NCBI RefSeq assembly: GCF_029868745.1
Contig: NZ_JARWOP010000108.1
Location: 1-45,831 of the forward strand
Length of the DNA: 45,831 nucleotides
Reading direction: 5' to 3'
From: Nocardia wallacei
GTDB lineage: Bacteria > Actinomycetota > Actinomycetes > Mycobacteriales > Mycobacteriaceae
Part shown: piece after piece, positions 8,953-36,231 of the stretch
Layout of the letters: each line of letters starts with the position of its first letter
Numbering within the stretch: position 1 is the first letter of the stretch
Translations under genes and position numbers: made by a program
The notes under the pieces: generated by a model
The model's database searches: none
Seen by the model: only the letters and a program-made list of their open reading frames with translations
Told to the model about the DNA's origin: nothing

Positions 8953-9888
8953 ATGGACGACAAGGGCGAAGCCGACCGGCGACGCCGGCCCGGGTCGCGA
9001 GTCGGTGAGGAAGAGACAGGAGGCGCGATGGCAGCCCGCCCGGTGCCGCAGCCGCCTTTCTCGACCGACCTGCTGGCCGACCTCCATGCCGACAATGTCT
9101 CCCCGGAGCTGTCCGAGCAGCTGTGGCCCCAGGTTCGCGAGGATCCCGAGTCACTGCGCTTCCTGCGCTCGCTCGACGATGTCACCGCGGAACTGCAAGC
9201 GCTGGGCCAGGATTCGCGCATCCTGCACGAGATGCCGCCCGATGTCACCGCCCGCCTGGACAGCCTGCTCGACGATCTCTCCCGCGGCGAGCAACCCGGC
9301 GAGCCCGCCTCCGCCGAGCAATTGGCCACCGTGCACCCGCTGCCCCCGCGCCGAGTATCGGCCGATCCCGCGGACACGCCGTCGACGCGCCCCATGCCCG
9401 CGCTGTCCGACGAGCACGCGCCCGAGTCGCCCGAGTTGTCCGAGCCGCTCGAGCCGATCCGACTCGACGCCCGGCGATCGCGGCGCTGGCAATGGCTCAC
9501 CGCGGCGGCCGCGGCCGTGGCGGTCCTGGCGGGCACCCTGATCGCGATCGATGCGGTCCGCGGCCCCGACGAGGCCCCGAAAGCGTTGCCCACCAACGAA
9601 ACACCGCCCCCGCTCGACGAGGACCTCCCCACCGCGACACTGCTGAGCGCCATCGGCCGCAACGATGTGACGGGCCCGCTGGCCGTCCCGGGCGCCATGA
9701 CGGGCTGCATCGCCGCGGCCGGATACGAACGGCCCGTGCTGGGCTCGATGAACGTCACCTTCCGCGGCGCTCCGGCGGTAGTGATCATCCTCACCGGCCC
9801 GCAGCCGCCCAAGATCACCGCCCTGGTCGTCGGAACGGGTTGCGGCCCTGGAGATGCGCAGCTGCTCGATCAGCGCGACATCGGCTGA
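8953..9888 (+). CDS. SigM-associated membrane anti-sigma factor (Rv3912-like)
   Basis: This 311-residue protein has a soluble N-terminal part with the pattern FSTDLLADLHADNVSPELSEQL, a single membrane helix (WLTAAAAAVAVLAGTLIAID, about residues 180-200) and an exterior domain ending in CGPGDAQLLDQRDIG. The gene directly downstream of sigM in M. tuberculosis (Rv3912) has the same layout. It is expected to hold SigM at the membrane. The ATG at 8953 follows ggagagg closely. The ATG at 9028 has a better-spaced AGGAGG (9018-9023) and gives MAARPVPQ, so the start could be there. Two cysteines in the exterior domain (in MTGCIAAAGYE and GTGCGPG) could form a disulfide. Confidence 0.82.
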   Translation: MDDKGEADRRRRPGSRVGEEETGGAMAARPVPQPPFSTDLLADLHADNVSPELSEQLWPQVREDPESLRFLRSLDDVTAELQALGQDSRILHEMPPDVTARLDSLLDDLSRGEQPGEPASAEQLATVHPLPPRRVSADPADTPSTRPMPALSDEHAPESPELSEPLEPIRLDARRSRRWQWLTAAAAAVAVLAGTLIAIDAVRGPDEAPKALPTNETPPPLDEDLPTATLLSAIGRNDVTGPLAVPGAMTGCIAAAGYERPVLGSMNVTFRGAPAVVIILTGPQPPKITALVVGTGCGPGDAQLLDQRDIG

Positions 9889-22699: not shown

Positions 22700-22712
22700 T
22701 TTACTCCCCAAC

Positions 22713-22749
22713 GCCGATCCACCCGTTCACCTGGGTGGATCGGCTTTTT
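22713..22749 (+). terminator. intrinsic terminator of dnaA
   Basis: GCCGATCCACCC (22713-22724) and GGGTGGATCGGC (22733-22744) form a perfect 12-base stem with an 8-base loop, followed by TTTTT. It closes the dnaA transcript before the origin. Confidence 0.9.
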
Positions 22750-22757
22750 CGTGCTGT

Positions 22758-23103
22758 GGATTCCTCGAGGAATCCTTGGGGAGTCCTCGAGGAATCCCAT
22801 GGTTCTCCACCGGTTTACGCACAGTTCGGCGGCAGGGGTGTTGACAGAGCCGCTCACAGCCATCGGTGCACAGTTCACACAGGCGGATCCGTCCACCGGC
22901 ACGGACCTGCGTCGATGCCGAGTTGTCCTTGTGGATTCCTCGAGGAGTCCCTGTCAGCTCCTCGAGGAATCCTCGAGTTGTCCACTACTTTGCGCACATA
23001 TGTGCACAAACCCGGCATAGGCATGGAACAACTCGAGGACGACTCGAGGACGGGCGTGGGACAGATTCGTAACCTCCACAGCGCCTCCCCGTTCATCCTC
23101 GAG
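22758..23103. repeat. array of CTCGAG-centred palindromes in oriC
   Basis: CTCGAG occurs at 22764, 22786, 22939, 22961, 22972, 23032, 23043 and 23098. The first, third and fourth copies are flanked by GGATTC/GAATCC or close variants. Two composite copies begin with TGTGGATTCCTCGAGGA (22755 and 22930), joining a DnaA-like 9-mer to the palindrome. Confidence 0.85.
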
Positions 23104-23157
23104 TCACCCGCCGGACATCCCCATGGCGGCACGCGCTCCGAGCAGCGGATTCGCGGG

Positions 23158-23191
23158 GAGTCCACAGAATCCACAGCGCCTACTACTACTT
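23158..23191 (+). promoter_or_regulatory. candidate origin unwinding element (DnaA boxes plus DnaA-trios)
   Basis: Two back-to-back 9-mers GAGTCCACA and GAATCCACA are followed by GCGC and then CTA-CTA-CTA-CTT. The complementary strand reads GAT-GAT-GAT-GAA in the 3' to 5' direction, the form described for DnaA-trios. This is the box, GC spacer, trio order of the basal unwinding system. Confidence 0.6.
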
Positions 23192-23500
23192 CAGTTCTTC
23201 TCCTTCAATAACTTCTTTCAAAACAGGGTGTGTGGAAACTCGGTTCGGGACGCGACGGTGCGGCAGCGAGCTCGACAGCATTCGAACGAATGGCAGGGAG
23301 AAGATCGGCGCCCGGACACGAGGCGACGCACCGGGGGAGGGGTGCCGTAGTCAATCGCCGCGCTCGCGGGTACGGTTTGTTGTCGGTCGCCTGTGCCAGA
23401 CTTCGAAGTCGGGGTGACCGTTCCAGAACACCCCTGCATGAGCCGGCGCTGAGCCGAACGGATCACGACCGATCGAGACTGGGAGAGGACATACCGGGCG

Positions 23501-24807: not shown

Positions 24808-25986
24808 ATGCACGTCCGGGCCTTGAGCCTGCGGGACTTTCGCTCCTGGGAGCAGGCCGAACTCGAACTGCCCGTCGGCCGAACGGTTTTCCTGGGCTCC
24901 AACGGCAACGGCAAGACGAACCTGGTCGAGGCGCTCGGCTACCTCGCGACCCTGGGTTCGCACCGGGTATCCACAGACGCGCCCCTGATCCGCCTGGGGG
25001 CGCAGCGCTCTCGGATCGGCGCGACCGTGGTGAACTCCGGGCGCGAGCTCCGTATCGATATCGAACTCAATCAGGGCTCGGCCAATCGCGCGCAGATCAA
25101 TCGCTCGCCGGTGCGGCGCACCCGGGAGATCCTGGGAATCCTCCAGACGGTGTTGTTCGCCCCGGAGGATCTGGCGCTGGTGCGCGGCGACCCGTCCGAG
25201 CGGCGGCGCTTCCTCGACGAGCTGTGCACCGCACAGCTGCCGCGCCTCGCGGGTGTGCGCTCGGACTACGACCGGGTGCTCCGGCAACGTTCGGCACTGT
25301 TGAAAACCGCGGGCCGCCAAGCCCGCTCGCGGTCGGGCACGCCCGCCGAGCTGAGCACGCTGGACGTCTGGGACGGCCATCTCGCCGCGCACGGCGCCGA
25401 ACTGCTGGCGCAGCGCCTGCGATTGGTGCACGAACTCCACCCCTACCTGGCGCGGGCGTACGGCTCGATCGCCCCGGAATCGCGTCCGGCCGCCATCCGC
25501 TACCGGAGTTCGCACCTGCCGCCGGAATTACTGGCGCCCGAGCGGATTCCGCAATCCGACGACGCCGCGGTGCTGGAGTCGGTCCTGCTGAGCGAGCTGG
25601 CGGCCGCGCGGGCCAAGGAACTCGAGCGCGGCGTCTGTCTCGTCGGCCCGCACCGCGACGACCTGGAACTGATGCTCGGCTCGGCGCCGGCCAAAGGCTT
25701 TGCCAGCCATGGGGAATCATGGTCCTTCGCCTTGGCGCTGCGATTGGCCGCCTTCGAGCTGCTGCGCAGCGTCGGCACCGACCCGGTCCTGCTCCTCGAC
25801 GACGTCTTCGCCGAACTGGATCGCCGCCGCCGCGCCGCCCTCGCCGCCGTCGCCACCACGGCCGAACAGGTACTCATCACCGCGGCCGTCCCCGAGGACG
25901 TTCCGCCCGAACTCGATGCCACCCCCGTGCGCATCGAAACCACCGGCGAGGCAGACCAGCGCACCTCCCAGCTCGGCCGTCCGTAA
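24808..25986 (+). CDS. recF: DNA replication and repair protein RecF
   Basis: This 392-residue SMC-like ATPase loads RecA at gaps with RecO and RecR. It shows Walker A ([26 protein letters not shown]), the ABC signature region ([22 protein letters not shown]) and Walker B with the D-loop ([20 protein letters not shown], about residue 328). ATG 24808 begins [21 protein letters not shown], the normal RecF start. In relatives the DUF721 gene follows at once. Here about 9.7 kb of other genes intervene. Confidence 0.96.
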
Positions 25987-26268: not shown

Positions 26269-26607
26269 ATGACCGAAAACCTGTACTCATCGGAACAACT
26301 GGCCGAGGCCGCGAATGCGGCGAAAACTATGGAGGCGATGATCGGTCGTCTCACCTATGACAGCGCATTCGCCGCGGATCTCGCCAACAACCCGCTCCGG
26401 ACCATCGAGAAGGCGGGATTGGTGATGGACAAGGAGGGAGTGGAGATTCTGATGACCACCGAGCCCGAGCGGTTCGACAGGATCTGCGAGACACTGTTCG
26501 ATCTCGTCGATTCGGACTTCCTGCACAAGATCGTGTCGCCTTCGTGTGACCAGCCCGGACTCGAGCCGGCGTTCATGGAGCACCGCGGCGTCGCCGTCCA
26601 GGCGTAG
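26269..26607 (+). CDS. leader-like small protein, possible RiPP precursor
   Basis: This 112-residue acidic protein opens the cluster. Residues 29-61 (LTYDSAFAADLANNPL then RTIEKAGLVMDKEGVEIL) resemble the leader region of NHLP/Nif11-type precursors, in which a DPAFRxxLLADP-like helix is followed by a segment ending GVEV. Residues 62-112 hold two Cys (73 and 93), Asp, Pro and aromatic residues (SPSCDQPGLEPAFMEHRG) and have no GG cleavage site. The gene has a good ribosome site and lies 43 bases before a cobalamin-type radical SAM gene. A ribosomal peptide substrate is my preferred reading. It could instead be a small partner protein. No database search was possible. Confidence 0.55.
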   Translation: MTENLYSSEQLAEAANAAKTMEAMIGRLTYDSAFAADLANNPLRTIEKAGLVMDKEGVEILMTTEPERFDRICETLFDLVDSDFLHKIVSPSCDQPGLEPAFMEHRGVAVQA

Positions 26608-26650
26608 CCGGTAGATATTTACTGATCCGCCACTCACAACGGGGGTTGGA

Positions 26651-28045
26651 ATGGCTCGTGTTGCGCTTGTCAATCTTGCAAGTCTGCCGATGCCCGGGAA
26701 CGAACCGATATTTCCGATCGGCTTGCGATGTATCCAGAATGCATTGGACCGGGCCGGGCATACGACGCGTCTGATCGACTTCGTCGAGGATCCGGACGCC
26801 TCCGTGGACCTTTCCTGGGCGAGCGAGCCCTGGGATGTCGTCGGATTCACGATTCGCAACATCGATCCGATCGACCTCGCATGTGGCGGGCACGTCGAGC
26901 ACTACGCTCGGTTCGTTCATCGGGTATGCGATGCGACCGGGGACCGAACTCCACTACTGGTAGGCGGAGGCCCAGGGTATAGCCTGTTCGCGGACGAGCT
27001 GCTCCGGCGGCTGGGGTTCGATGCCGGAGTGGTCGGCCCCGGCGAACAGGTTATGCTCGACATCGTTGCCGACCCCGAGCGATACCGGGGAAAGCGCAAG
27101 AATATTCCGGGACGTCGTTACGACGGTTTCACCACAGAACTGCTCCGACATCCGGCCGCATTGATGGCCGCCTATGCCGCGACCGACGATCCGATGATCG
27201 GCGTCGAAACCCGCCGGAAGACCTGTTATCAAGGTTGTGTGTACTGCCCGTACGCCTACATCAGCGGCGATAATGCGGGCGATCTCAAGCCGGTGGACCT
27301 GATCGCTGCCGAGCTACAGGAAATCTACGACTCCGGAATCAGGCGGGTATTCTTCACGGATGGCATCTTCAATGCCGAGATCCGATATGCGAAGGAAGTC
27401 GCGCGCACGATCGCCGACCTGCGCCTTCCGGGCCTCCGGTGGTCGGCATATTTCACCCCGAAGCCGTTCGACGACGAATTCGCACAGATCCTCGCTTCGA
27501 GTGGGGTCGACTATATCGTCATATCTCCCGACAGCCTCGACGACCGAATGATGAAGACATTGGGGAAGAGTTTCGATATACGGCACGTGGACCGGTGTAT
27601 CGATCGGTGTCGGCGGCACGGCCTGGATCTGCGTGTCAATATCGTGTTCGGGGGCCCCGGAGAGAATGTGGACAGTGTTCGCGCCTCCGCGGAGTACGCG
27701 AATCGAAAGCTGCGCACCGGCGAATTGATCATGCACGTCGGATACCGGGTGCTGCCCGAGACCGCCCTCGCCAGACAGCTCGCGATGACCGAGGACGACC
27801 TGCTGGATCCCACCTTCTATCCCTTCGACGAAAACCTTTTCTCGTGGGTCGTCGAATTTCTCGACAAGCGTTTCATCCCGACCGGCGTCCTGTTGAATCT
27901 CATGGCGGGCAAGACCGCGAGCCGGCGGATGACGAAGGTTCCCGTCCCGGCCGGGCCGACCGACAGCAACGTGGTCGATCTGCCCTTCCTGGCGCTTCGC
28001 AACAGCCCGCGCGCGGCCTCGCAGGTAGGCGGTGAAACGGCTTGA
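26651..28045 (+). CDS. cobalamin-binding-type radical SAM enzyme
   Basis: The 464-residue protein has an N-terminal Rossmann-like cobalamin-binding region (about 1-140, with WDVVGFTIRNIDPIDL and LLVGGGPGYSL...DAGVVGPGEQV), then a radical SAM core with the cluster motif CYQGCVYC (Cys192, 196, 199). It lacks the DxHxxG of base-off B12 proteins, as do most B12 radical SAM enzymes. Such enzymes commonly methylate unactivated carbons of peptides or small molecules, but some do other chemistry. Several ATA codons (EPIFP, FDIRH, VIS) stand out from the neighbouring core genes. The next gene starts inside its stop (TTGA). Confidence 0.85.
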   Translation: MARVALVNLASLPMPGNEPIFPIGLRCIQNALDRAGHTTRLIDFVEDPDASVDLSWASEPWDVVGFTIRNIDPIDLACGGHVEHYARFVHRVCDATGDRTPLLVGGGPGYSLFADELLRRLGFDAGVVGPGEQVMLDIVADPERYRGKRKNIPGRRYDGFTTELLRHPAALMAAYAATDDPMIGVETRRKTCYQGCVYCPYAYISGDNAGDLKPVDLIAAELQEIYDSGIRRVFFTDGIFNAEIRYAKEVARTIADLRLPGLRWSAYFTPKPFDDEFAQILASSGVDYIVISPDSLDDRMMKTLGKSFDIRHVDRCIDRCRRHGLDLRVNIVFGGPGENVDSVRASAEYANRKLRTGELIMHVGYRVLPETALARQLAMTEDDLLDPTFYPFDENLFSWVVEFLDKRFIPTGVLLNLMAGKTASRRMTKVPVPAGPTDSNVVDLPFLALRNSPRAASQVGGETA

Positions 28046-28896
28046 GTACCGTCCTCGTGCGCCGGTTGCGGCCGTCCGACGCCCCGGCGATCACTCACCT
28101 CATCGGGGCGACTGCCTACAGCCCACGGACATTGGCCCGCGAGCTCGCGTCCGGCACCGACTATCTGTGGATGGGCACCGTCGATCAGGACGGCACGTTG
28201 TGCGCGGTGCACCGAGCCATGCGGTGGGGAAACCACCTGCTGCTCAAGGGCATCGTCGTACGCGAAGACCGGCGTGGCGGCGGGACGGCCCTGGAACTGG
28301 TCTTCGGCCTGCGCGAGGAGGCCCGCGTCGCGGGCTTCGCCGGCCTGGTCGCCTGGGCCGAGCCGCATCAGCCCGAGTCGGTCCTGGCGCGGCGATTGCG
28401 ATTGCGGATCGCCGGACCGCTTCTGCACAGGTTCGAGGTCCCGGCCGCGGCGGCGACGGAACCCGAGCCGGACGACGCGCCGCCGCCCCCGGACAGTGGC
28501 TCGATCGGATTCGAGAGCGCCTCACCCAGCACGGCACATCCGTTGCTGCCCTGCGTGCTCGACACCGACGTGCAGCCGCTCCGACAGCGGGACCAGAGCA
28601 TCCTGCACTGGGTCGCCGACCGGCACAGGCTCGTTGTCAGCGGCTATCCGTACGCCTCCGTCGCGGATCTCCCGGAGTTCGTCCGTGCCGTGGAGACGGT
28701 GACGCGAGCACGAAGACTGCGAAGTATCGAAATACCGCTGCCCGCCGCGGATTTGGCGACAGCGCTGGCGCTCACCCGCACCGGGGCGCGCCGGCTGAGT
28801 CGCACCCCGGTCCGGGTCGCCCGCCTCGACTTCGATGTCGCACGCGTACCCGAGCAGCCGCCCTACCATCTCAGCGGACGGGTGAGCCGGCGATGA
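28042..28896 (+). CDS. GNAT-family acyltransferase
   Basis: This 284-residue protein has an N-terminal GNAT domain with acyl-CoA loop LLKGIVVREDRRGGGTALELVFGLREEAR (RRGGGT corresponds to RxxGxG/A). A proline-rich linker (about 142-170) and a second domain of about 110 residues (HWVADRHRLVVSGYPYASVADLPEF) follow. The TTG start at 28042 overlaps the stop of the radical SAM gene and its own stop overlaps the next ATG. GNAT enzymes acetylate amines, and some in peptide pathways take long acyl groups from carrier proteins. The carrier protein and ligase in this cluster make that possible here. The actual acceptor is unknown. Confidence 0.75.
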   Translation: MSTVLVRRLRPSDAPAITHLIGATAYSPRTLARELASGTDYLWMGTVDQDGTLCAVHRAMRWGNHLLLKGIVVREDRRGGGTALELVFGLREEARVAGFAGLVAWAEPHQPESVLARRLRLRIAGPLLHRFEVPAAAATEPEPDDAPPPPDSGSIGFESASPSTAHPLLPCVLDTDVQPLRQRDQSILHWVADRHRLVVSGYPYASVADLPEFVRAVETVTRARRLRSIEIPLPAADLATALALTRTGARRLSRTPVRVARLDFDVARVPEQPPYHLSGRVSRR

Positions 28897-30143
28897 TGCC
28901 GCATGAAGCACGGTCGCTGTGCCTGTCGGCCGAAACGGACGCGGCGGTACGCCATTTCCGCCACCGCGGAATCGACGCGCACGACCTCGCCAGCCTGTTG
29001 CGCCGCCGCGAGCCGCTACCGCCACGGCTCGTCCCCACCGAGATCGAGGTGGAGGACGGCGCCGGCGGCACGGGAACGGTCGCGGTTCATGTGCCGTCGC
29101 GGACTACATCGCGCCGCGATCTCGGCGCCCTGATCGTCCTGCACGGCGCGGGCGGCAGCGGCGACCGGATCCTTCCCGCGTTCGCGGCGCTCGGCGAACG
29201 CCTGTCGATGGCCGTTCTGTGCCCGACGGCGACTTCGCTTCCGCCCGGCGCGGCGAATCTCGATCTGGCCGGGCTGTTCGGCAAACGATTCACCCTGCCT
29301 CGATGGGACCTCGCCGCGCCGGGGTTGCCGATGGCGGCATTGCGGTGGGCGCGCGCCGAACTCGACGTCGACCCCGACCGATGCGTGCTGGCCGGCGTGT
29401 CCATGGGGGGCTTGGCAGCATGGAATCTCGGCCTGCGCTACTGGGACCAGTTCGCGGCCGCCGTGCCGCTCAACGGCGCTCTCTCGGTGTGGGAATCATT
29501 CGGCACCGACCGCCGGACCAGGGCCTTGCTCGAGAACGCGCTGGCGCTCCCGCTGTTCGTCGTGCACGGCGGCCGAGACGAGCAGATCCCACCCCGATCC
29601 GACCGCGAATCCGTCGCGGAGCTGCGGCGCCTCGGCCACTCGTGCGTGGAGTACGCCGAGGTGCCCGACGGCGAGCATCAGCTCTCCACACTGGGCCTGG
29701 CGGCGTCCGAATCGCTGCACGAGCGACTGGCGGCCTGGTTGCGGATGCGGCGGCGCAGTCAACCCTCGGAGCTGTGGCATCGCGCCGACGCCGACCATCA
29801 CGGCCGTGCGCATTGGGTTCGGCTGCATGGCATCTCGGGCCGAGCGCAGGCCGAGGTGCGTGCGCGCCGGACGGCACACCACCGGCTCGACGTCGAGGTC
29901 CGCGGCGCGGATTACGTGACGGTCGACCTCACCGGTCGGTGGTTCGAGCCCGGTGCGGAGGTGACCGTCTCGGTGAACGGCACCGATACGGTGGTCCGCT
30001 TCGAACCCGACCTGGAAACGGTGATCGGCACCTACCGCGAATCGGCCGATTCGGGGATCTTCGCCGAGCAGTCGATCTCCCTTCCGGTCCGCCGATCCGA
30101 CGGCGCATACATCGCGAGCGAAATGGGGAGCCACCGATGCTGA
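28893..30143 (+). CDS. alpha/beta hydrolase (esterase/peptidase type) with C-terminal beta domain
   Basis: The 416-residue protein has an alpha/beta hydrolase fold (about 75-285) with oxyanion-hole segment ALIVLHGAGGSG, nucleophile elbow GVSMGGLAAW, an acid in VVHGGRDEQIPP and a histidine in PDGEHQLSTLG. The C-terminal 120 residues form a beta-rich domain (AHWVRLHGISGRAQAEVRAR...VTVSVNGTDTVVRFEPD) like that trailing some polyhydroxyalkanoate-depolymerase and prolyl-oligopeptidase-type enzymes. ATG 28893 overlaps the GNAT stop (ATGA). It has no signal peptide. It could act as a protease, an esterase or a thioesterase for the carrier protein. Confidence 0.8.
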   Translation: MMPHEARSLCLSAETDAAVRHFRHRGIDAHDLASLLRRREPLPPRLVPTEIEVEDGAGGTGTVAVHVPSRTTSRRDLGALIVLHGAGGSGDRILPAFAALGERLSMAVLCPTATSLPPGAANLDLAGLFGKRFTLPRWDLAAPGLPMAALRWARAELDVDPDRCVLAGVSMGGLAAWNLGLRYWDQFAAAVPLNGALSVWESFGTDRRTRALLENALALPLFVVHGGRDEQIPPRSDRESVAELRRLGHSCVEYAEVPDGEHQLSTLGLAASESLHERLAAWLRMRRRSQPSELWHRADADHHGRAHWVRLHGISGRAQAEVRARRTAHHRLDVEVRGADYVTVDLTGRWFEPGAEVTVSVNGTDTVVRFEPDLETVIGTYRESADSGIFAEQSISLPVRRSDGAYIASEMGSHRC

Positions 30144-31150
30144 CTCGATCCGAGATTCGTGCCGCGCTGCGGGCCACGGGCACCGCACAGCGGGAGTTGT
30201 TCGCCGAGGCTCGCCGGCTGCGCGCACTGCACTTCGGAGACACCGTAATCCTGCGCGGGGTTGTCGAAATTACCAATGTATGCAGGGTGAATTGCCGGTA
30301 TTGCCCCATGCGCCGGGAAAATACTCTGGACAACGACCGCTACTTCATGAGTTCCGACGAGATCGTCGAACGAGTCCGTGCGATCCACGCGGCAGGAATC
30401 GATATCGTCCTCCTCCAGGGCGGCGAGACAACGAAGAACATCTCCATTCTGGAGAAGGCGATACCGGCGATTCAAGAGATGTACTCGAACCGGGTCGAGG
30501 TACTTCTCAACCTCGGAAATATGCGCCGTGACCAGTACGAACGGCTCAGGCGGGCCGGTGCGACCAGCTACATCCTGAAGCATGAGACGAGTGACCCGGC
30601 GCTCCATCAATTGATGCGCGAGGATTCCCTGCAGCAACGGTTGCGCTGCTTCGACGATCTCCTCGATCTCGGCTACCGGGTCGGCACCGGAATCATCTCG
30701 GACCTACCGGGGCAGACGCTGGAAAGTATTGTCGACGACATCGAATTGGCGCACGCGATGGGCGCGCACATGTGCAGCGTGAGCCCGTTCGTGCCCGCGC
30801 CTCGCACGCCTCTGGAATCGGCGCCGAGCGGCTCGGTCGATCTGGCTTTGAATATATTGGCCTGCTTGCGGATCTGCTGCCCCGATATCCTGATCCCCTC
30901 GGTCAGCGCACTCGAGAAGAACAGCTCCGGCGGCCAGGCTCAGGGCCTGATGGCCGGTGCGAACGTCATGACGGTGAATTTCACCGGCGAGCTCAATCGC
31001 AACCGTTACCTGATCTACGGGCAGGACAGGTTCGTCGTCAAACTGCAGCACGTGCGCGACCTGGTTCGGTCCAGTGGCCTCGAGACTCGCGGATCGGTCT
31101 TCCTCGAACCGGTCGATTCCGTGCCGGGTCCGGGAAGCAACCGGCAATGA
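30137..31150 (+). CDS. HydE/BioB-like radical SAM enzyme
   Basis: The 337-residue protein has the radical SAM motif CRVNCRYC (Cys49, 53, 56) in the context VVEITNVCRVNCRYCPMRRENT and IDIVLLQGGE. This is closest in pattern to HydE, and to BioB and PylB in overall layout. Its full TIM-barrel and C-terminal half (ISDLPGQTLESIVDDIELAHAMGAHMCSVSPFVPAPRTPL...GANVMTVNFTGELNRNRYLIY) are intact. No hydrogenase genes are nearby, so an H-cluster role is very unlikely. The family also makes carbon-carbon and carbon-sulfur rearrangements, such as in methylornithine. ATG 30137 overlaps the hydrolase stop. The function here is unknown. Confidence 0.85.
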   Translation: MLTRSEIRAALRATGTAQRELFAEARRLRALHFGDTVILRGVVEITNVCRVNCRYCPMRRENTLDNDRYFMSSDEIVERVRAIHAAGIDIVLLQGGETTKNISILEKAIPAIQEMYSNRVEVLLNLGNMRRDQYERLRRAGATSYILKHETSDPALHQLMREDSLQQRLRCFDDLLDLGYRVGTGIISDLPGQTLESIVDDIELAHAMGAHMCSVSPFVPAPRTPLESAPSGSVDLALNILACLRICCPDILIPSVSALEKNSSGGQAQGLMAGANVMTVNFTGELNRNRYLIYGQDRFVVKLQHVRDLVRSSGLETRGSVFLEPVDSVPGPGSNRQ

Positions 31151-32421
31151 GCCCGATGCCGGGCGTATCCACGGACTTCGGCAGGTTCTGGCTCGGGCAG
31201 ACCCTGTCGGTTTTCGGTGCGCGGATCGGTGGCCTCGCGCTGTCGGTGACGGCGGTGGACGTTCTGGGCGCGAGCAGCGGCGAGGTCGGTATCCTGACCG
31301 CGGCATCGACCGCGGCCGCCCTGATCCTCGGTCTCCCCGCCGGGGCCTGGGTGGACCGAATGCGCAAACGCGGCCTCATGGTGCTGTGTTCGTCGGTCCG
31401 GACCGTGCTGATGCTGGTGATCCCGCTGCTGTGGTGGTCCGGGCACCTGACCATCGAGGTCATGTACGTCGTGGCGGTGACCGTCGGGATCGCGGCGCTG
31501 TTCTTCGATATCGCTTATCTGTCCTACATTCCGCTCCTGGTCCCGGCGGACCGGATCGCGACGGCCAACTCCCGGCTGGAAGCCTCCGCGCAGGTGTCCA
31601 TCCTCGGTGGGCCCGGACTCGCGGGGATGCTGATGCGGGTGCTGAGCGCGCCCGCCGTGCTGCTCGTGGATGCCGCCTCGTACCTCGTGAGCGTGTTCGC
31701 GCTGTTGACCATCGGGGACCGGGAGGTCCGTGCGCCGCGGCGAGATCGGGCAAGACCTCGCTTGGGAGCGGATATCGCGTCGGGTTTGCGATTCGTCCTG
31801 AAAGAGCCTGTGATGCAACGCCTCGCGGTGTCGGTCGGGGTCTCCAACTTCTTCGCGACCATCGTCACGACGCTGATACCCCTGCTCGTGCTGCGCGTGC
31901 TCGGCTTCGACGGCCTCATGCTGGGCGTCATCATGATGGCGGGCGCGGGCGGCGGTGTTCTCGGCGCGCTGCTCGTTCCCGCCCTACAGCGCCGGTTCCG
32001 CGACGGTCGGGTGATGGCGGGCGGATTGCTGGTCGCGGCGGGCTGTTCCGCGTTCGGCCCGCTCGCCGCGCTGAACGGTTCGCGCGGTTCGGCCGTGGCG
32101 GTCACCCTGCTGCTGGTCGGCGAATTCGGGACGGGATTGGGAGCGGTGTCGTTCCGCGTGCCGCAACTGTCGGTACGGCAGCAGCGCTGCCCGCAGGAGA
32201 TGCAGGGCCGGATGAATGCCACCCTGCGCTATGTCGTGCGTGCGTCTATGCCCTTCGCGGCGCTGACGGCGGGCTGGCTGGGCACCGCGGTGGGCATCGT
32301 CCCGGCGCTGTGGATCGGCGTGGTCGGTGCGGTCGTGACCGTTTTGCCGATCGTCGGCATCGACCGACTCCTCTCCGTGCCCGCAGACCATTTGATCGAG
32401 CCGGGAAAGGCACCCGTATGA
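31147..32421 (+). CDS. MFS transporter
   Basis: The 424-residue protein has about twelve membrane segments and the pattern of MFS drug or product exporters related to the MFS_3 (enterobactin exporter-like) family: FGRFWLGQTLSVFGARIGGLALSV at the start and GLPAGAWVDRMRKRGLMVLCS for motif A between helices 2 and 3. The region GRMNATLRYVVRASMPFAALTAGWLGTAVG is typical of the C-terminal half. The ATG overlaps the previous stop. It probably exports the product of this cluster. Confidence 0.9.
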   Translation: MSPMPGVSTDFGRFWLGQTLSVFGARIGGLALSVTAVDVLGASSGEVGILTAASTAAALILGLPAGAWVDRMRKRGLMVLCSSVRTVLMLVIPLLWWSGHLTIEVMYVVAVTVGIAALFFDIAYLSYIPLLVPADRIATANSRLEASAQVSILGGPGLAGMLMRVLSAPAVLLVDAASYLVSVFALLTIGDREVRAPRRDRARPRLGADIASGLRFVLKEPVMQRLAVSVGVSNFFATIVTTLIPLLVLRVLGFDGLMLGVIMMAGAGGGVLGALLVPALQRRFRDGRVMAGGLLVAAGCSAFGPLAALNGSRGSAVAVTLLLVGEFGTGLGAVSFRVPQLSVRQQRCPQEMQGRMNATLRYVVRASMPFAALTAGWLGTAVGIVPALWIGVVGAVVTVLPIVGIDRLLSVPADHLIEPGKAPV

Positions 32422-33740
32422 CCGCGCCACGCCGCCGCGACCTGGCCATGCGAATTCTGGGACAGCGGCTGTTCGTCAACGGCGCGCCGCTGGACGAGCG
32501 CAGTACCGACCTGCGGGACATGATGCGAACCGTCGGGGATGCCGGTGTGCGTCCCGATGACCTGGTCGCACTGAGCGGGCTCGAGGGCCGCGAGTTCGTG
32601 ATCGCGGTGCTGGCCCTCTGGTACTGCGAAGCGATACCGGTCCCCGACGCCGCACGCGACGCCGCGACGGCCGGAGCGCACAGCGCGTGGCTCGTCACCG
32701 GCGATCTGGCGATTCGCCGCGGGCGGGCGTCCCACCGCGAGCCGGGGCTGAGCTCGACCGCCGTGGTACACACCACCTCGGGGAGCACCGGACGGCCGAA
32801 ATTCGTTCGGCGTGGGATAGCCAGTGTTCTGCTCGAGGCGGCGGGTTATCGCGAAAGTCTGGGCCTCGGGCCGGAAGACCGTGTCGCCGTGCCGATCCCG
32901 CCGGCGCACTCCCTGGGATGGGGAACACTGACGAGTGCGTTGCTGAGCGGATCCGCTGTCGAGATCAGGCCGTTCGTCCGGCCGAGTACCCTCGCCGGCT
33001 CGATCGACGCCGGTTCGGTGTCGGTGGTCGTGATGACGCCGCCGATTGCCCGACTCCTGGTCGACACCCGCCGGACCGGAACAGCCACGCCGAGAACGGC
33101 GCTGGTGGGTGCGGGTCCGGTGAGCGACGCGCTCGACCGGTCCTTCCGCATGCGCTTCGGGCGAGAGTTGTTGCGCGGCTACGGGTCCACCGAAACCGGC
33201 GGCACGTTCGTCGGCACGACCGGTATCGGAGCGCCGCTGTCCGGGGTGCGGATCGCGGCGCCGCCACGCGGGTCGGAAGGCGAACTGCTGCTCGAAATCG
33301 CGGCCCCGGTCGAGGGATATCTCGATGAGCAGGCGCCGGCGAGCGTGTGGAACACGGGGGATGTGGTCCGGCACGAGGAGGACGGCACAGTGCGATTCGT
33401 GGAGCGTGCGGCGGGCGGTCTGCGGTTGAACGGCCGGTTTGTCGACGTCCGGGCGGTCCGGGAGGCGGTGACCGGCGTGCCCGGCGTGGCCGACCTGCAC
33501 CTGCTCGTGCTGGCACGCCCGGACGACCCGGATATCCAGGACTTCTACGCCTTCGTAGCCGGCGCTGCGAGCACCGACGAGGTGCTGGAGAGCCTGACCG
33601 AACGTGCACCCGGCGAGCCGATTCCGCGTGTCGTCCGATGCGACCGCATTCCTCGGACCGTTATCGGCAAGCCGGATCGCAGGGCGATGATCGAAATGAT
33701 CGGAGAGGGGGATGCGCATGACGGAGCAGGCATCCGATAG
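32418..33740 (+). CDS. AMP-forming acyl/aminoacyl ligase
   Basis: This 440-residue member of the ANL superfamily should activate a carboxylic or amino acid as the adenylate and load the adjacent carrier protein. Motifs seen are the A3 phosphate loop HTTSGSTGRPKFVRRG, A5 GYGSTETGG, A7 NTGDVV, A8 LRLNGRFVDVRAVREAV and A10 PRTVIGKPDRRAM with the catalytic lysine. It is shorter than a typical 500-residue ligase, mainly at the N-terminus, so the front half of the large domain is reduced. It overlaps the MFS gene and is overlapped by 29 bases by the carrier protein gene. The substrate cannot be predicted by eye. Confidence 0.88.
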   Translation: MTAPRRRDLAMRILGQRLFVNGAPLDERSTDLRDMMRTVGDAGVRPDDLVALSGLEGREFVIAVLALWYCEAIPVPDAARDAATAGAHSAWLVTGDLAIRRGRASHREPGLSSTAVVHTTSGSTGRPKFVRRGIASVLLEAAGYRESLGLGPEDRVAVPIPPAHSLGWGTLTSALLSGSAVEIRPFVRPSTLAGSIDAGSVSVVVMTPPIARLLVDTRRTGTATPRTALVGAGPVSDALDRSFRMRFGRELLRGYGSTETGGTFVGTTGIGAPLSGVRIAAPPRGSEGELLLEIAAPVEGYLDEQAPASVWNTGDVVRHEEDGTVRFVERAAGGLRLNGRFVDVRAVREAVTGVPGVADLHLLVLARPDDPDIQDFYAFVAGAASTDEVLESLTERAPGEPIPRVVRCDRIPRTVIGKPDRRAMIEMIGEGDAHDGAGIR

Positions 33741-34041
33741 CGCCCGGACCGGGGCATACGAATTGCTGGTGGCTACCCATGTGTTTCGAGTGATGTCGAA
33801 ATACGACACCCGGGTGGCGAGTGCCGCGGAATTGGTTTCCGATGCGGACCTGCGCACCCGGGACCTGGCCGTACTGGGGCTGGGATCGCTCGACTGGATG
33901 GCACTGGCGACCGCGCTGGAGCAGGCGACCGATCGAGAACTTCCGGATCGGGTGCTGGTCGATCCGCAACAACGGTGCATTGCCGGTTGGGCCGCCGCGC
34001 TCGCGACGGCCGAACGAATCGGAACGGGAGGGAATTCATGA
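33712..34041 (+). CDS. acyl/peptidyl carrier protein
   Basis: The 109-residue protein is a stand-alone carrier protein. The motif LAVLGLGSLDWMALATALEQ places the phosphopantetheine serine at residue 59, with Gly where most carriers have Asp (GLGS instead of GxDS). The gene begins inside the ligase gene, at ATG 33712 or ATG 33718, and ends within the next start. Tight coupling to the ligase makes loading by that enzyme likely. No matching PKS or NRPS module is in the window. A phosphopantetheinyl transferase is also not encoded here. Confidence 0.82.
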   Translation: MRMTEQASDSARTGAYELLVATHVFRVMSKYDTRVASAAELVSDADLRTRDLAVLGLGSLDWMALATALEQATDRELPDRVLVDPQQRCIAGWAAALATAERIGTGGNS

Positions 34042-34772
34042 GAGAGACTCAGCGTGGCGACAGATTCGTCGTCATCGATGATTTTCTGGATCCGGCGGAG
34101 CTGACGGCCGCCCGGCGGATGCTGCACCGGGCGTCCTTCGAGTCGATCGAGAGCGTGGTCTCCGCGGCCGACGATGGGCGGGCATTTCGTTCGAGAGGAA
34201 CGTATTTCGGTCCGGAACTGGGCCGCCCGGACGTACGTGGCGGCCGGCCCGCGGTATACGAAAAGCTGGGCGGGGTGGTGCATTCCGAGCCCGGCCTGTA
34301 CGGCCGCGCCGAGCGGGATTGGGACCGGGTGTCGTTCGCCTTCTGGAAATATCCGGCGGGCAGCCGACTCGGCTGGCACAACGATGCGGGCCAGGGGCGG
34401 TGGGGGGAATTCGTCCTGTTCCTGCACGAGCGCTGGCCGGCGTCCTGGGGCGGTGAGTTGTTGTTGCTGGACGTGGACGCCGAAAGCCTGGTCCGGCCGG
34501 ACGATGCCGCGCCCGACAACCTGTTGCGGCGGATGGAGGTGTTGGTCGAACGATGCCCCTCGAACCCCGTCGCCATCGTCCCGAAACCGAATCGGCTGGT
34601 GCTCGTGCGTACGGGGACGATTCACACGATCTCCCGGGTCGACCCGGTCGCCGGTGACAACCTGCGCTGCACGTTGACCGGATTCGTCTCCGCTCACGGC
34701 GAGCGCGAGACGAACCGGCACGGCGGCCGGCGCATGGTGACCGAGGTATTGGCAGGATCGGCGACCAGGTGA
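34038..34772 (+). CDS. 2-oxoglutarate/Fe(II) oxygenase, prolyl-4-hydroxylase type
   Basis: The 244-residue protein shows the P4H-like facial triad: His114 and Asp116 (GWHNDAG) and His196 (TIHTISRV), followed by an arginine region (NLRCTLTGF, Arg210) suited to 2-oxoglutarate. The start RFVVIDDFLDPAELTAARRML is typical of the family. It is expected to hydroxylate a carbon of a peptide or carrier-bound substrate. The ATG overlaps the carrier protein stop. It lies 7 bases before the second hydroxylase gene. Confidence 0.85.
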   Translation: MRETQRGDRFVVIDDFLDPAELTAARRMLHRASFESIESVVSAADDGRAFRSRGTYFGPELGRPDVRGGRPAVYEKLGGVVHSEPGLYGRAERDWDRVSFAFWKYPAGSRLGWHNDAGQGRWGEFVLFLHERWPASWGGELLLLDVDAESLVRPDDAAPDNLLRRMEVLVERCPSNPVAIVPKPNRLVLVRTGTIHTISRVDPVAGDNLRCTLTGFVSAHGERETNRHGGRRMVTEVLAGSATR

Positions 34773-34779
34773 GGTAGCG

Positions 34780-35652
34780 ATGCAACCGTGGGTTCTGAGT
34801 GGTCCGGAACAGTTGAAGAGCTGGTCCGACCGATACGACGTGGATCGAGCCGACCTCGCCCGGCTGTGGCAGGGGCTCGAGATAACAGCCTGCGGTGAGA
34901 TCCCGCGGCACGTGCCCGCCGGGCAACTTCCGACCATCTATGTTCCGGGACTGTCGGCTGTTCCCTGGTGGGAACGCGAGGCGTTTCCCTGGCTGTCCGG
35001 ACTGGAGAGCGCCGCGCCGGCGATTACCGCGGAGTTCGAGGCGCTGGGCGGTGTGGCGGGAGCCGGTACCGTGCGATCACCCTCGACGGGTTCGGTCGAC
35101 CGGGGCAGTTGGTCGGCCAGATATCTCTACAACGTCGGCCGTCCCCAGGCCCGGCACCTTCGTTCGTGTCCCCGGACCGTCGCGGCGCTCGGCCCGATCC
35201 CGGGCGCACTGGGCTGCGGCATGTGTTATTTCTCCATCGCTGGTCCGCAGACGCACATCACCGCGCACACCGGATATACGAACGCGCATCTCAGATGTCA
35301 TCTGAGTCTGGTCGTGCCGCCCGGCTGTGCGATCCGCGTCGGCCGGGAGGTGCGGGAGTGGGAAGAACGCACGGCATTCGTGTTCGACGATTCATTCGAG
35401 CACGAGGTCTGGAACAACAGTGACTCCGCGCGGGCCGTCCTGCTCTTCGATATCTGGCATCCGGACCTCACCGCGATCGAACGAGCCGCGCTCGGACACC
35501 TGATGGATGTCTGGCGACGCCAGATCTACCGGACCTACTGGGCCGGTGCGCTGGCCGGGTCGATGTCACGTGACACCAGCCGTGGACGCGCCCGCACTCT
35601 GTCCCGAACGGATAGCCTTTCCCGCGAAGGAAGTACCGAACAGGACGAGTGA
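34780..35652 (+). CDS. aspartyl/asparaginyl beta-hydroxylase family protein
   Basis: The 290-residue protein contains the Asp_Arg_Hydrox domain with THITAHTGYTNAHLRCHLSLVVP and REWEERTAFVFDDSFEHEVWN, then ARAVLLFDIWHP. His163, Arg172, His208 and Arg218 align with the metal and 2-oxoglutarate residues of AspH-type hydroxylases (two-His site, no carboxylate). Homologues hydroxylate Asp or Asn in proteins, peptides or lantibiotics. The last 30 residues are an Arg/Ser-rich tail (RDTSRGRARTLSRTDSLSRE). The stop is 12 bases from the DUF721 start, so the cluster reads directly into core genes. Confidence 0.88.
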   Translation: MQPWVLSGPEQLKSWSDRYDVDRADLARLWQGLEITACGEIPRHVPAGQLPTIYVPGLSAVPWWEREAFPWLSGLESAAPAITAEFEALGGVAGAGTVRSPSTGSVDRGSWSARYLYNVGRPQARHLRSCPRTVAALGPIPGALGCGMCYFSIAGPQTHITAHTGYTNAHLRCHLSLVVPPGCAIRVGREVREWEERTAFVFDDSFEHEVWNNSDSARAVLLFDIWHPDLTAIERAALGHLMDVWRRQIYRTYWAGALAGSMSRDTSRGRARTLSRTDSLSREGSTEQDE

Positions 35653-35664
35653 AGGGAGCCCCCG

Positions 35665-36231
35665 ATGGCGGATGGTGTCGACCGCGACGCCGCGCCCGCC
35701 GGTGAACCGGAGGGTGAGCTGCACGGAGTCGACCTGGCCCGCCGGGCGCTCGAGGAGGCGCGAGCCGCCGCGCGGGCGAGCGGCAAGGCGGTCGGTCAGG
35801 GGCGCGCGTCGCCGCGCAAGGGCGGTGTCCGGGCGCTGCGCCGCCGCTCGGGATGGTCGGGGGCCGGGCCCGATCAGCGCGATCCGCAGCCGCTGTCCGC
35901 GCTGGCGGGCGCGCTGGCCAAGAGCCGCGGCTGGTCCGCCAAGGTCGCCGAGGGCATGGTGTTCGGGCGCTGGGCGAGCGTGGTCGGCGAGGACGTGGCC
36001 GCGCACGCGAACCCGGTATCGCTCACCGACGGCGTCTTGAGCATCCAGGCGGAATCCACCGCCTGGGCGACTCAGCTACGCATGCTGCAGGCCCAGATCC
36101 TGGCGAAGATCTCCGCGGCTGTCGGGCCGGGTGCGGTCACGTCGCTGAAGATCAGCGGACCGGCGGCGCCGAGCTGGCGGAAGGGTGAACGGCACATCAA
36201 GGGTCGAGGCCCGCGCGACACCTACGGGTGA
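35665..36231 (+). CDS. DUF721 (DciA-like) family protein
   Basis: The 188-residue protein matches the Rv0004 position and sequence style: a basic, disordered N-terminus and a C-terminal DUF721 domain ([44 protein letters not shown]...[16 protein letters not shown]). DciA-type DUF721 proteins help load the replicative helicase in bacteria lacking DnaC. ATG 35665 follows agggag after the AspH-like gene. In relatives it directly follows recF. Here it has been separated by the inserted cluster and probably shares its transcript. Confidence 0.92.

What the first reader, a model, noticed from the sequence alone, without database searches (positions are those of the whole stretch)
26269..35652. Ten-gene specialised-metabolism operon inserted between recF and DUF721
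recF and the DUF721 gene are normally adjacent in this order (M. tuberculosis Rv0003-Rv0004). Here a leader-like peptide, a B12 radical SAM enzyme, a GNAT, a hydrolase, a HydE-like radical SAM enzyme, an MFS exporter, an AMP ligase, a carrier protein, a 2OG oxygenase and an AspH-like protein all lie on one strand in the core replication locus. From the second gene to the ninth almost every stop overlaps the next start. I know of no described pathway with this combination.
Basis: partly seen in the sequence, partly recalled or inferred. Interest (0 to 1): 0.95.

Follow-up and report, generated by a model that had tools for sequence, protein, structure and literature searches.

The report
Ribosomal peptide pathway with Ser-Cys core
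Between two of its chromosome-replication genes this bacterium carries a ten-gene cluster, found in related form in other bacteria, encoding a small peptide of a family whose 84 members found here all have a cysteine preceded by serine, threonine or cysteine near their end, plus enzymes predicted to turn that end piece into an exported compound of unknown structure, which would be a new family of ribosomal natural product.

Summary
Ten intact same-strand genes (26269-35652) lie between recF and the DUF721 (DciA) gene. All seven junctions from gene 2 to gene 9 overlap. Of 29 other same-genus recF loci fetched, 27 show the two flanking genes 89-721 bases apart with no cluster gene; 2 run off the contig. 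The B12 radical SAM gene occurs in 1 of 150 same-genus genomes (this one). It is therefore an insertion, but not a unique combination: 15 orthologous loci in seven other genera carry most of the set. Gene 1 is a ribosomal-peptide precursor of the Os1348/NHLP clan. Across 84 family members its end keeps Pro-[Ser/Thr/Cys]-Cys-X: Cys in 84, Pro in 80, and 42 end exactly at X. My best reading is a RiPP pathway in which a helical leader presents this tiny core to a B12 radical SAM enzyme, a HydE/PylB-like radical SAM enzyme and two 2-oxoglutarate oxygenases. An acyl group activated by ligase and carrier protein would be attached by the GNAT, followed by release and MFS export. Only genes, residues and conservation are shown; every chemical step is inferred. 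The listings of ten literature searches showed no such pathway.

The parts
26269..26607 (+). Gene 1: RiPP precursor (112 aa), helical NHLP/Os1348-type leader with C-terminal core
   Evidence: Matches NF038399 (Os1348 family NHLP clan) E 1.9e-9, 37.4 bits, cut-off 40; 16 of 16 family members scanned match that model at E <= 0.001; AF2 model helical to residue 89, low-confidence coil after about residue 90
26539..26550 (+). Predicted core Pro-Ser-Cys-Asp (residues 91-94 of gene 1)
   Evidence: In 84 family members (the window's own included): Cys 84, preceding residue S/T/C 84 (70/11/3), Pro 80, next residue D/G/A/S/C/E/N 84; 42 end at that residue
26651..28045 (+). Gene 2: B12-binding radical SAM enzyme, predicted C-methylase
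   Evidence: PF02310 + PF04055; Cys192, Cys196 and Cys199 invariant in 18; family profile matches 6wte, a tryptophan C2-methyltransferase, 118 bits
28042..28896 (+). Gene 3: extended GNAT-fold protein, predicted acyltransferase (TTG start)
   Evidence: PF00583 E 0.076 only; AF2 model and fold matches
28893..30143 (+). Gene 4: alpha/beta hydrolase, best Pfam match prolyl oligopeptidase family, plus C-terminal domain; predicted release enzyme
   Evidence: PF00326 E 1.6e-8, other hydrolase families close behind; G-x-S-M-G, Asp and His conserved in the 14 rows aligned
30137..31150 (+). Gene 5: HydE/PylB-like radical SAM enzyme
   Evidence: 190.6 bits to HydE 3ciw, 69.3 to PylB 3t7v; TIGR03956 219 bits, below cut-off 254.6; C49, C53 and C56 invariant in 14
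31147..32421 (+). Gene 6: MFS exporter
   Evidence: PF07690 E 2.9e-33
32418..33740 (+). Gene 7: AMP-forming acyl ligase, predicted to load gene 8
   Evidence: PF00501 E 9.2e-29; SGS(T/A/S) loop and C-terminal GK conserved; fused to the carrier protein in L021
33712..34041 (+). Gene 8: phosphopantetheine carrier protein
   Evidence: PF00550 23.5 bits over cut-off 20.8; carrier Ser conserved
34038..34772 (+). Gene 9: 2OG-Fe(II) oxygenase
   Evidence: PF13661/PF13640; WHND, distal His and Arg conserved
34780..35652 (+). Gene 10: Asp/Asn-hydroxylase-like 2OG oxygenase
   Evidence: PF05118 149.3 bits; 124 bits to AspH 5apa; HxG(Y/F)(T/S)NAHLR and FDD(S/T)xxHE conserved

Best explanation
This is a conserved ten-gene operon, inserted between recF and DUF721 and likely acquired horizontally, encoding a small precursor peptide with a C-terminal Pro-Ser-Cys-Asp (Pro-[Ser/Thr/Cys]-Cys-X in most of its family), and it likely makes a very small ribosomally derived, sulfur-containing natural product from that end piece. 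Proposed route, every step inferred: the folded helical leader of gene 1 presents the core just after its last helix; the B12 radical SAM enzyme (gene 2) C-methylates it; the HydE/PylB-like radical SAM enzyme (gene 5) carries out a radical cleavage or rearrangement at the Cys-bearing unit; the two 2OG oxygenases (genes 9, 10) hydroxylate it; the ligase and carrier protein (genes 7, 8) activate a carboxylic acid, which the GNAT (gene 3) transfers to an amine of the core; the Pro-flanked core is freed by the hydrolase (gene 4); and the MFS protein (gene 6) exports the product.
For: Fifteen orthologous loci keep the set. Precursor, B12 enzyme, GNAT, hydrolase and HydE-like enzyme are in 15 of 15, GNAT and hydrolase being very divergent (26-30% identity) in the two Glycomyces loci. 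AMP ligase is in 14 of 15; the contig of L018 ends inside the HydE gene. Among the other 14, the carrier protein is in 14 (11 by BLAST; L028-L030 read from translations), the 2OG oxygenase in 13 and AspH in 11. In L021 ligase and carrier protein are one open frame, which fits the ligase loading the carrier. Protein distances of eight of the nine other genes correlate with those of gene 2 at r 0.71-0.96. The core conservation is (84 sequences; 44 groups at 70% identity, 9 at 50%). The leader clan is proven as RiPP precursors in the Pseudomonas pos/pfl clusters, modified at the C-terminus (PMC12636437, abstract and passages). Pearlins show that Cys at the end of a carrier peptide can be worked on by a B12 radical SAM enzyme and released (PMC9303977, abstract, opening text and passages). 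At least four of 15 loci (L025, L026, L029, L030) carry a nearby M24 protein with an aminopeptidase P N-terminal domain, which fits trimming up to the conserved Pro.
Against: No product, expression or activity data. The 84 precursors were found with a profile that includes the core columns, which could favour carriers of the motif. Half of them have a tail after X, 18 residues in the window, whose fate is unexplained. The order of steps and the acyl substrate are guesses. In the related pfl cluster, adding the GNAT (PflB) gave no mass change on the peptide (PMC12636437 passage), so a peptide-acylating GNAT is unproven even there. Gene 4 scores as well as or better than this as an esterase or depolymerase in other libraries. 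The GNAT's acyl-donor loop (motif recalled) is weak in the Glycomyces loci. AspH is missing in L024-L026, the 2OG oxygenase in L024 (whose contig is short), and the MFS gene is orthologous in only 5 of 14 loci. The carrier-protein distances follow those of gene 2 only at r 0.51.
Confidence: 0.6

Rival explanations
1. Carrier-peptide (pearlin-like) logic: only the Cys is built into a single-amino-acid product while Pro and Ser/Thr/Cys serve for recognition, and the remainder is recycled or degraded.
For: Cys is the one invariant core residue, 84 of 84; pearlins use a C-terminal Cys, and the tmo cluster also has a B12 radical SAM enzyme, a protease and a transporter (PMC9303977).
Against: The Cys is genetically encoded and never last: at least one residue follows in 84 of 84. 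No PEARL-type (PF04738) or DUF692 (PF05114) match in this genome's assembly.
Confidence: 0.18
2. The whole modified roughly 100-residue protein is the active agent (bacteriocin-like), as was suggested for Os1348.
For: Loss of Os1348 lowered antibiotic activity (PMC7726476, abstract, section 15 and passages), and that work is cited for full-length precursor in cell lysates (PMC12636437 passage).
Against: Plasmid complementation did not restore the antibiotic activity of the Os1348 mutant (PMC7726476 passage). Here the transporter is an MFS protein, a hydrolase is in 15 of 15 loci, and aminopeptidase P-like genes lie near at least 4 of 15.
Confidence: 0.1
3. The product is an intracellular redox cofactor or metal ligand made from a short peptide end, in the manner of PQQ or mycofactocin (recalled).
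For: Tiny conserved core in a large leader and two radical SAM enzymes.
Against: Sporadic distribution: 1 of 150 same-genus and 1 of 396 phylum-sampled genomes, both times only this genome; an MFS gene in the operon; no dehydrogenase among the ten genes.
Confidence: 0.07

Closest known systems
pos/pfl RiPP clusters of Pseudomonas (Os1348/PosA, PflA)
   Same: Precursor of the same Os1348/NHLP clan, GNAT gene next to it, modifications at the C-terminus
   Different: They use an HEXXH 2OG enzyme and an MNIO-nitroreductase on a Gln run followed by ARMD; here B12 and HydE-like radical SAM enzymes, AMP ligase and carrier protein, and a Pro-[Ser/Thr/Cys]-Cys-X end
Pearlins (tmo, 3-thiahomoleucine; tgl, 3-thiaglutamate)
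   Same: Cys at the end of a carrier peptide; in tmo also a B12 radical SAM enzyme, a protease and a transporter
   Different: Their Cys is added by a PEARL and loses its beta-carbon; here Cys is encoded and this genome has no PF04738 or DUF692 match
Proteusins such as polytheonamide (recalled)
   Same: NHLP-type leader, B12 radical SAM methylases, 2OG oxygenase
   Different: Long cores; here the conserved core is four residues, with a HydE-like enzyme and a ligase-carrier pair
HydE and PylB (radical SAM enzymes of hydrogenase maturation and pyrrolysine synthesis)
   Same: Gene 5 matches both by sequence
   Different: Below the HydE and PylB equivalog cut-offs and set among peptide-modifying genes

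Membership tests
RiPP (general) | Genetically encoded precursor with leader and conserved C-terminal core | tested here: met
   helical leader and low-confidence tail
RiPP (general) | Modifying enzymes conserved beside the precursor | tested here: met
   15 of 15 orthologous loci have precursor, B12 and HydE-like enzymes
RiPP (general) | Modified peptide product observed | not testable with these tools
   No mass spectrometry available
Os1348 family NHLP clan | Match to NF038399 (NH_RiPP_Os17) | tested here: inconclusive
   Window E 1.9e-9, but 37.4 bits against cut-off 40; 16 of 16 family members match at E <= 0.001
pos/pfl RiPPs | HEXXH enzyme and MNIO-nitroreductase | tested here: not met
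   No such family among the matches of the ten genes; no PF05114 match in the genome
Pearlins | PEARL enzyme adding the C-terminal amino acid | tested here: not met
   No PF04738 match in this genome; at least one encoded residue follows Cys in 84 of 84
Proteusins | NHLP leader (TIGR03793) | tested here: inconclusive
   Window E 0.078, below cut-off; 5 of 16 members match at E <= 0.001
B12-dependent radical SAM (class B) enzymes | B12-binding domain plus radical SAM domain with three-Cys motif | tested here: met
B12-dependent radical SAM (class B) enzymes | Methyl transfer to the substrate | not testable with these tools
   Needs anaerobic assay
HydE hydrogenase maturase | Equivalog score TIGR03956 | tested here: not met
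   219 bits against cut-off 254.6

The most novel reading that the evidence does not exclude
A new RiPP family that joins ribosomal and carrier-protein logic: a four-residue Pro-[Ser/Thr/Cys]-Cys-X end, held on a folded NHLP leader, is rebuilt by a B12 radical SAM enzyme and a HydE-type radical SAM enzyme acting on a peptidyl cysteine unit, capped with an acyl group from a carrier protein, and released as a tiny exported thiol- or thioether-containing compound.
Probability: 0.4. Interest if true: 0.82.

Novelty: new variant of a known kind. Interest (0 to 1): 0.66.

Why it matters
If right, it defines an apparently undescribed RiPP family with a very small core, spread over several bacterial genera, gives HydE/PylB-type radical chemistry a peptide substrate, and links acyl-carrier activation to ribosomal peptides. 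The invariant core and ten-gene cassette make the steps testable by co-expression and mass spectrometry.

Tried and rejected
Considered and dropped: (a) unrelated core genes that happen to be adjacent. The B12 gene has no match at E <= 1e-30 in the other 149 same-genus genomes, and the cassette travels together. (b) AspH acting on the Asp after Cys. Loci with Gly, Ala or Asn there keep AspH, and L024-L026 with Asp lack it. (c) A PEARL or DUF692 pearlin: neither family matches in this genome; matches in the other genomes (6 of 15 and 11 of 15 genomes searched) were not placed relative to the clusters. (d) Plasmid-borne copies: no match in the plasmid collection at E <= 1e-40. (e) A hairpin between genes 1 and 2: z -1.04, not notable.

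Led nowhere: the first genome-contig scan, with gene 5, found no relative. Fold search of the precursor gave nothing significant: the rows with E 2.3 to 3.3 include the borosin precursor SonA and Os1348. Gene 9 had no PDB sequence match at E <= 0.1. Literature searches for the combination showed nothing like it in their listings (one search listed 20 of 146 papers, 15 of 32, 5 of 8). The Os1348 papers came through. PMC10635010 (a RiPP class with a B12 radical SAM enzyme) was seen in listings only.

Rows dropped: L018 (near-duplicate of L017, contig ends in gene 5) was left out of A2, A4 and all distance matrices. L023 was left out of A3 and A4, and of the gene 7 and gene 9 distance matrices, because some of its ORFs are split. 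L029 and L030 were left out of the hydrolase alignment. L032-L067 (23-29% identity) were not analysed as orthologues.
Full report
What is there. Ten intact ORFs on one strand fill 26269-35652, between recF (24808-25986) and the DUF721 gene (35665-36231; Pfam now calls it DciA), with dnaN before and gyrB and gyrA after. All seven junctions from gene 2 to gene 9 overlap by 4 to 29 bases; genes 9-10 are 7 bases apart and gene 10 ends 12 bases before DUF721. GC3 is 0.70-0.86 in the ten genes against 0.86-0.93 in dnaN, recF, DUF721, gyrB and gyrA, a mild sign of foreign origin.

It is an insertion. Of 58 other same-genus genomes searched with recF, loci were fetched for 29; 27 show recF and DUF721 89-721 bases apart, 2 run off the contig, and none of the 29 has a cluster gene. 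The B12 radical SAM gene occurs in 1 of 150 same-genus genomes at E <= 1e-30, this one, and in 1 of 396 genomes sampled from the phylum at E <= 1e-80, again this one. In the 35 other same-genus genomes the best match to gene 5 is E 3.5e-7 over a short stretch. The protein database lists clusters containing genes 1 and 2 with 4 and 5 member sequences (P0233, P0001), P0001 on a contig of 7.9 Mb, so another isolate probably carries the operon.

It is a conserved cassette. A search with gene 2 returned 98 proteins, of which 85 (its own entry included) are at least 49% identical over at least 90% of the query. A profile scan of species genomes gave 51 loci, 15 of them at 51% identity or more and taken as orthologues (L017-L031). 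Precursor, B12 enzyme, GNAT, hydrolase and HydE-like enzyme are in 15 of 15 (GNAT and hydrolase very divergent in L029 and L030), and AMP ligase in 14 of 15, L018 being cut off. Of the 14 loci other than L018, the carrier protein is in 14 (11 by BLAST, 3 read), the 2OG oxygenase in 13, AspH in 11 and an orthologous MFS gene in 5. In L021 ligase and carrier protein form one open frame; in L023 the ligase and oxygenase genes are each split between two frames. Pairwise distances of eight other genes correlate with those of gene 2 at r 0.71-0.96, the carrier protein at 0.51.

Gene 1 is the key. Sixteen of 16 family members scanned match the Os1348/NHLP-clan model NF038399; the window's own score, 37.4 bits, is just under the cut-off of 40. 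A profile search found 84 family members, the window's own included. In all 84 there is a Cys near the end, preceded by Ser (70), Thr (11) or Cys (3). Pro precedes that in 80. The following residue is Asp 31, Gly 30, Ala 17, Ser 2, Cys 2, Glu 1 or Asn 1, and 42 of 84 end right there. These sequences fall into 44 groups at 70% identity and 9 at 50%. Because the profile includes the core columns, some bias towards the motif is possible. A few leader positions are as conserved as the core Cys (an Asp and a Phe, both 84 of 84), but the Cys stands alone in an otherwise variable tail. The AlphaFold model (mean pLDDT 82.7) is helical to residue 89, with low confidence from about residue 90, so Pro91-Ser92-Cys93-Asp94 sits just after the last helix.

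The enzymes look functional. Conserved are the three Cys of both radical SAM enzymes; the ligase loop and C-terminal Lys and the hydrolase triad (Glycomyces loci left out of the hydrolase alignment); the carrier Ser; and the putative iron and 2OG ligands of both oxygenases (residue roles recalled). The ligase has His-Ser-x-Gly where NRPS enzymes have the amino-group Asp (motif recalled), so an acyl rather than amino acid substrate is likelier. Gene 5 scores 190.6 bits with HydE and 69.3 with PylB in the PDB. Gene 10 scores 124 bits with AspH. The gene 2 family profile scores 118 bits with 6wte, a tryptophan C2-methyltransferase (TsrM, name recalled).

Mechanism. I commit to a RiPP whose core is the four-residue end. 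Inferred steps: leader-guided C-methylation by gene 2, radical cleavage or rearrangement by gene 5, hydroxylation by genes 9 and 10, acylation by genes 7, 8 and 3, release by gene 4 and export by gene 6. Release next to Pro is suggested by gene 4's best Pfam match (prolyl oligopeptidase family), though esterase and depolymerase families match it as well or better in other libraries. It is also suggested by M24 proteins with an aminopeptidase P domain in at least 4 of 15 loci (just before the precursor in L026, 1.5 kb from it on the other strand in L025, after AspH in L029 and L030). Against the acylation step: in the related pfl cluster the GNAT gave no further mass change.

Comparison. PosA/Os1348 and PflA are proven NHLP-clan RiPP precursors modified at their C-terminus by an HEXXH enzyme and an MNIO-nitroreductase, with a GNAT gene beside them (PMC12636437, abstract and passages; PMC7726476, abstract, passages and section 15). 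Pearlins build 3-thia amino acids from a Cys at the end of a carrier peptide, one of them with a B12 radical SAM enzyme (PMC9303977, abstract, opening text and passages). The window differs from both in its enzymes, and it fails a defining test of each: no HEXXH or MNIO family among the matches of the ten genes, and no PEARL or DUF692 match in the genome. I therefore call it a new variant of a known kind, a RiPP pathway.

Limits. No product, transcript or activity was examined. The held paper library lacks most subscription journals, and MIBiG was not available.

Noticed in passing
window 22700-23200: Between dnaA and dnaN: six 19-nt copies (74-100%) of a CTCGAGGAATCC-type repeat and a 69-nt direct duplication (77%), probably part of the replication origin.
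   Followed up: partly
L021:14466-16019: In Actinomadura oligospora the AMP ligase and carrier protein are fused into one 517-residue open frame.
   Followed up: partly
L030:8941-9240 and 9578-9877: This Glycomyces locus has two precursor genes in a row, both ending in ...APSCD plus two residues.
   Followed up: no
L024:5818-7293: The Kitasatospora locus inserts a third radical SAM enzyme (PF04055) between GNAT and hydrolase, and its core is Asn-Ser-Cys-Asp instead of Pro-Ser-Cys-X.
   Followed up: partly
L025:15054-15836, L026:18062-18847, L027:19680-20534, L026:18834-19892: Three loci add a related methyltransferase (Pfam-scanned in L025 only); L026 also has a HAD-type protein next to it.
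   Followed up: partly
L017:6433-7818 and relatives in L018, L019, L022, L023, L025, L026: Seven loci share a putative DNA-binding regulator near the cluster (only weak HTH matches in the two scanned, L017 and L026); none was found among the window's ten genes.
   Followed up: partly
P0087, P0089: Two relatives of gene 2 are listed with PF01261 (xylose-isomerase-like TIM barrel) as well as the radical SAM domain and without the B12 domain.
   Followed up: no
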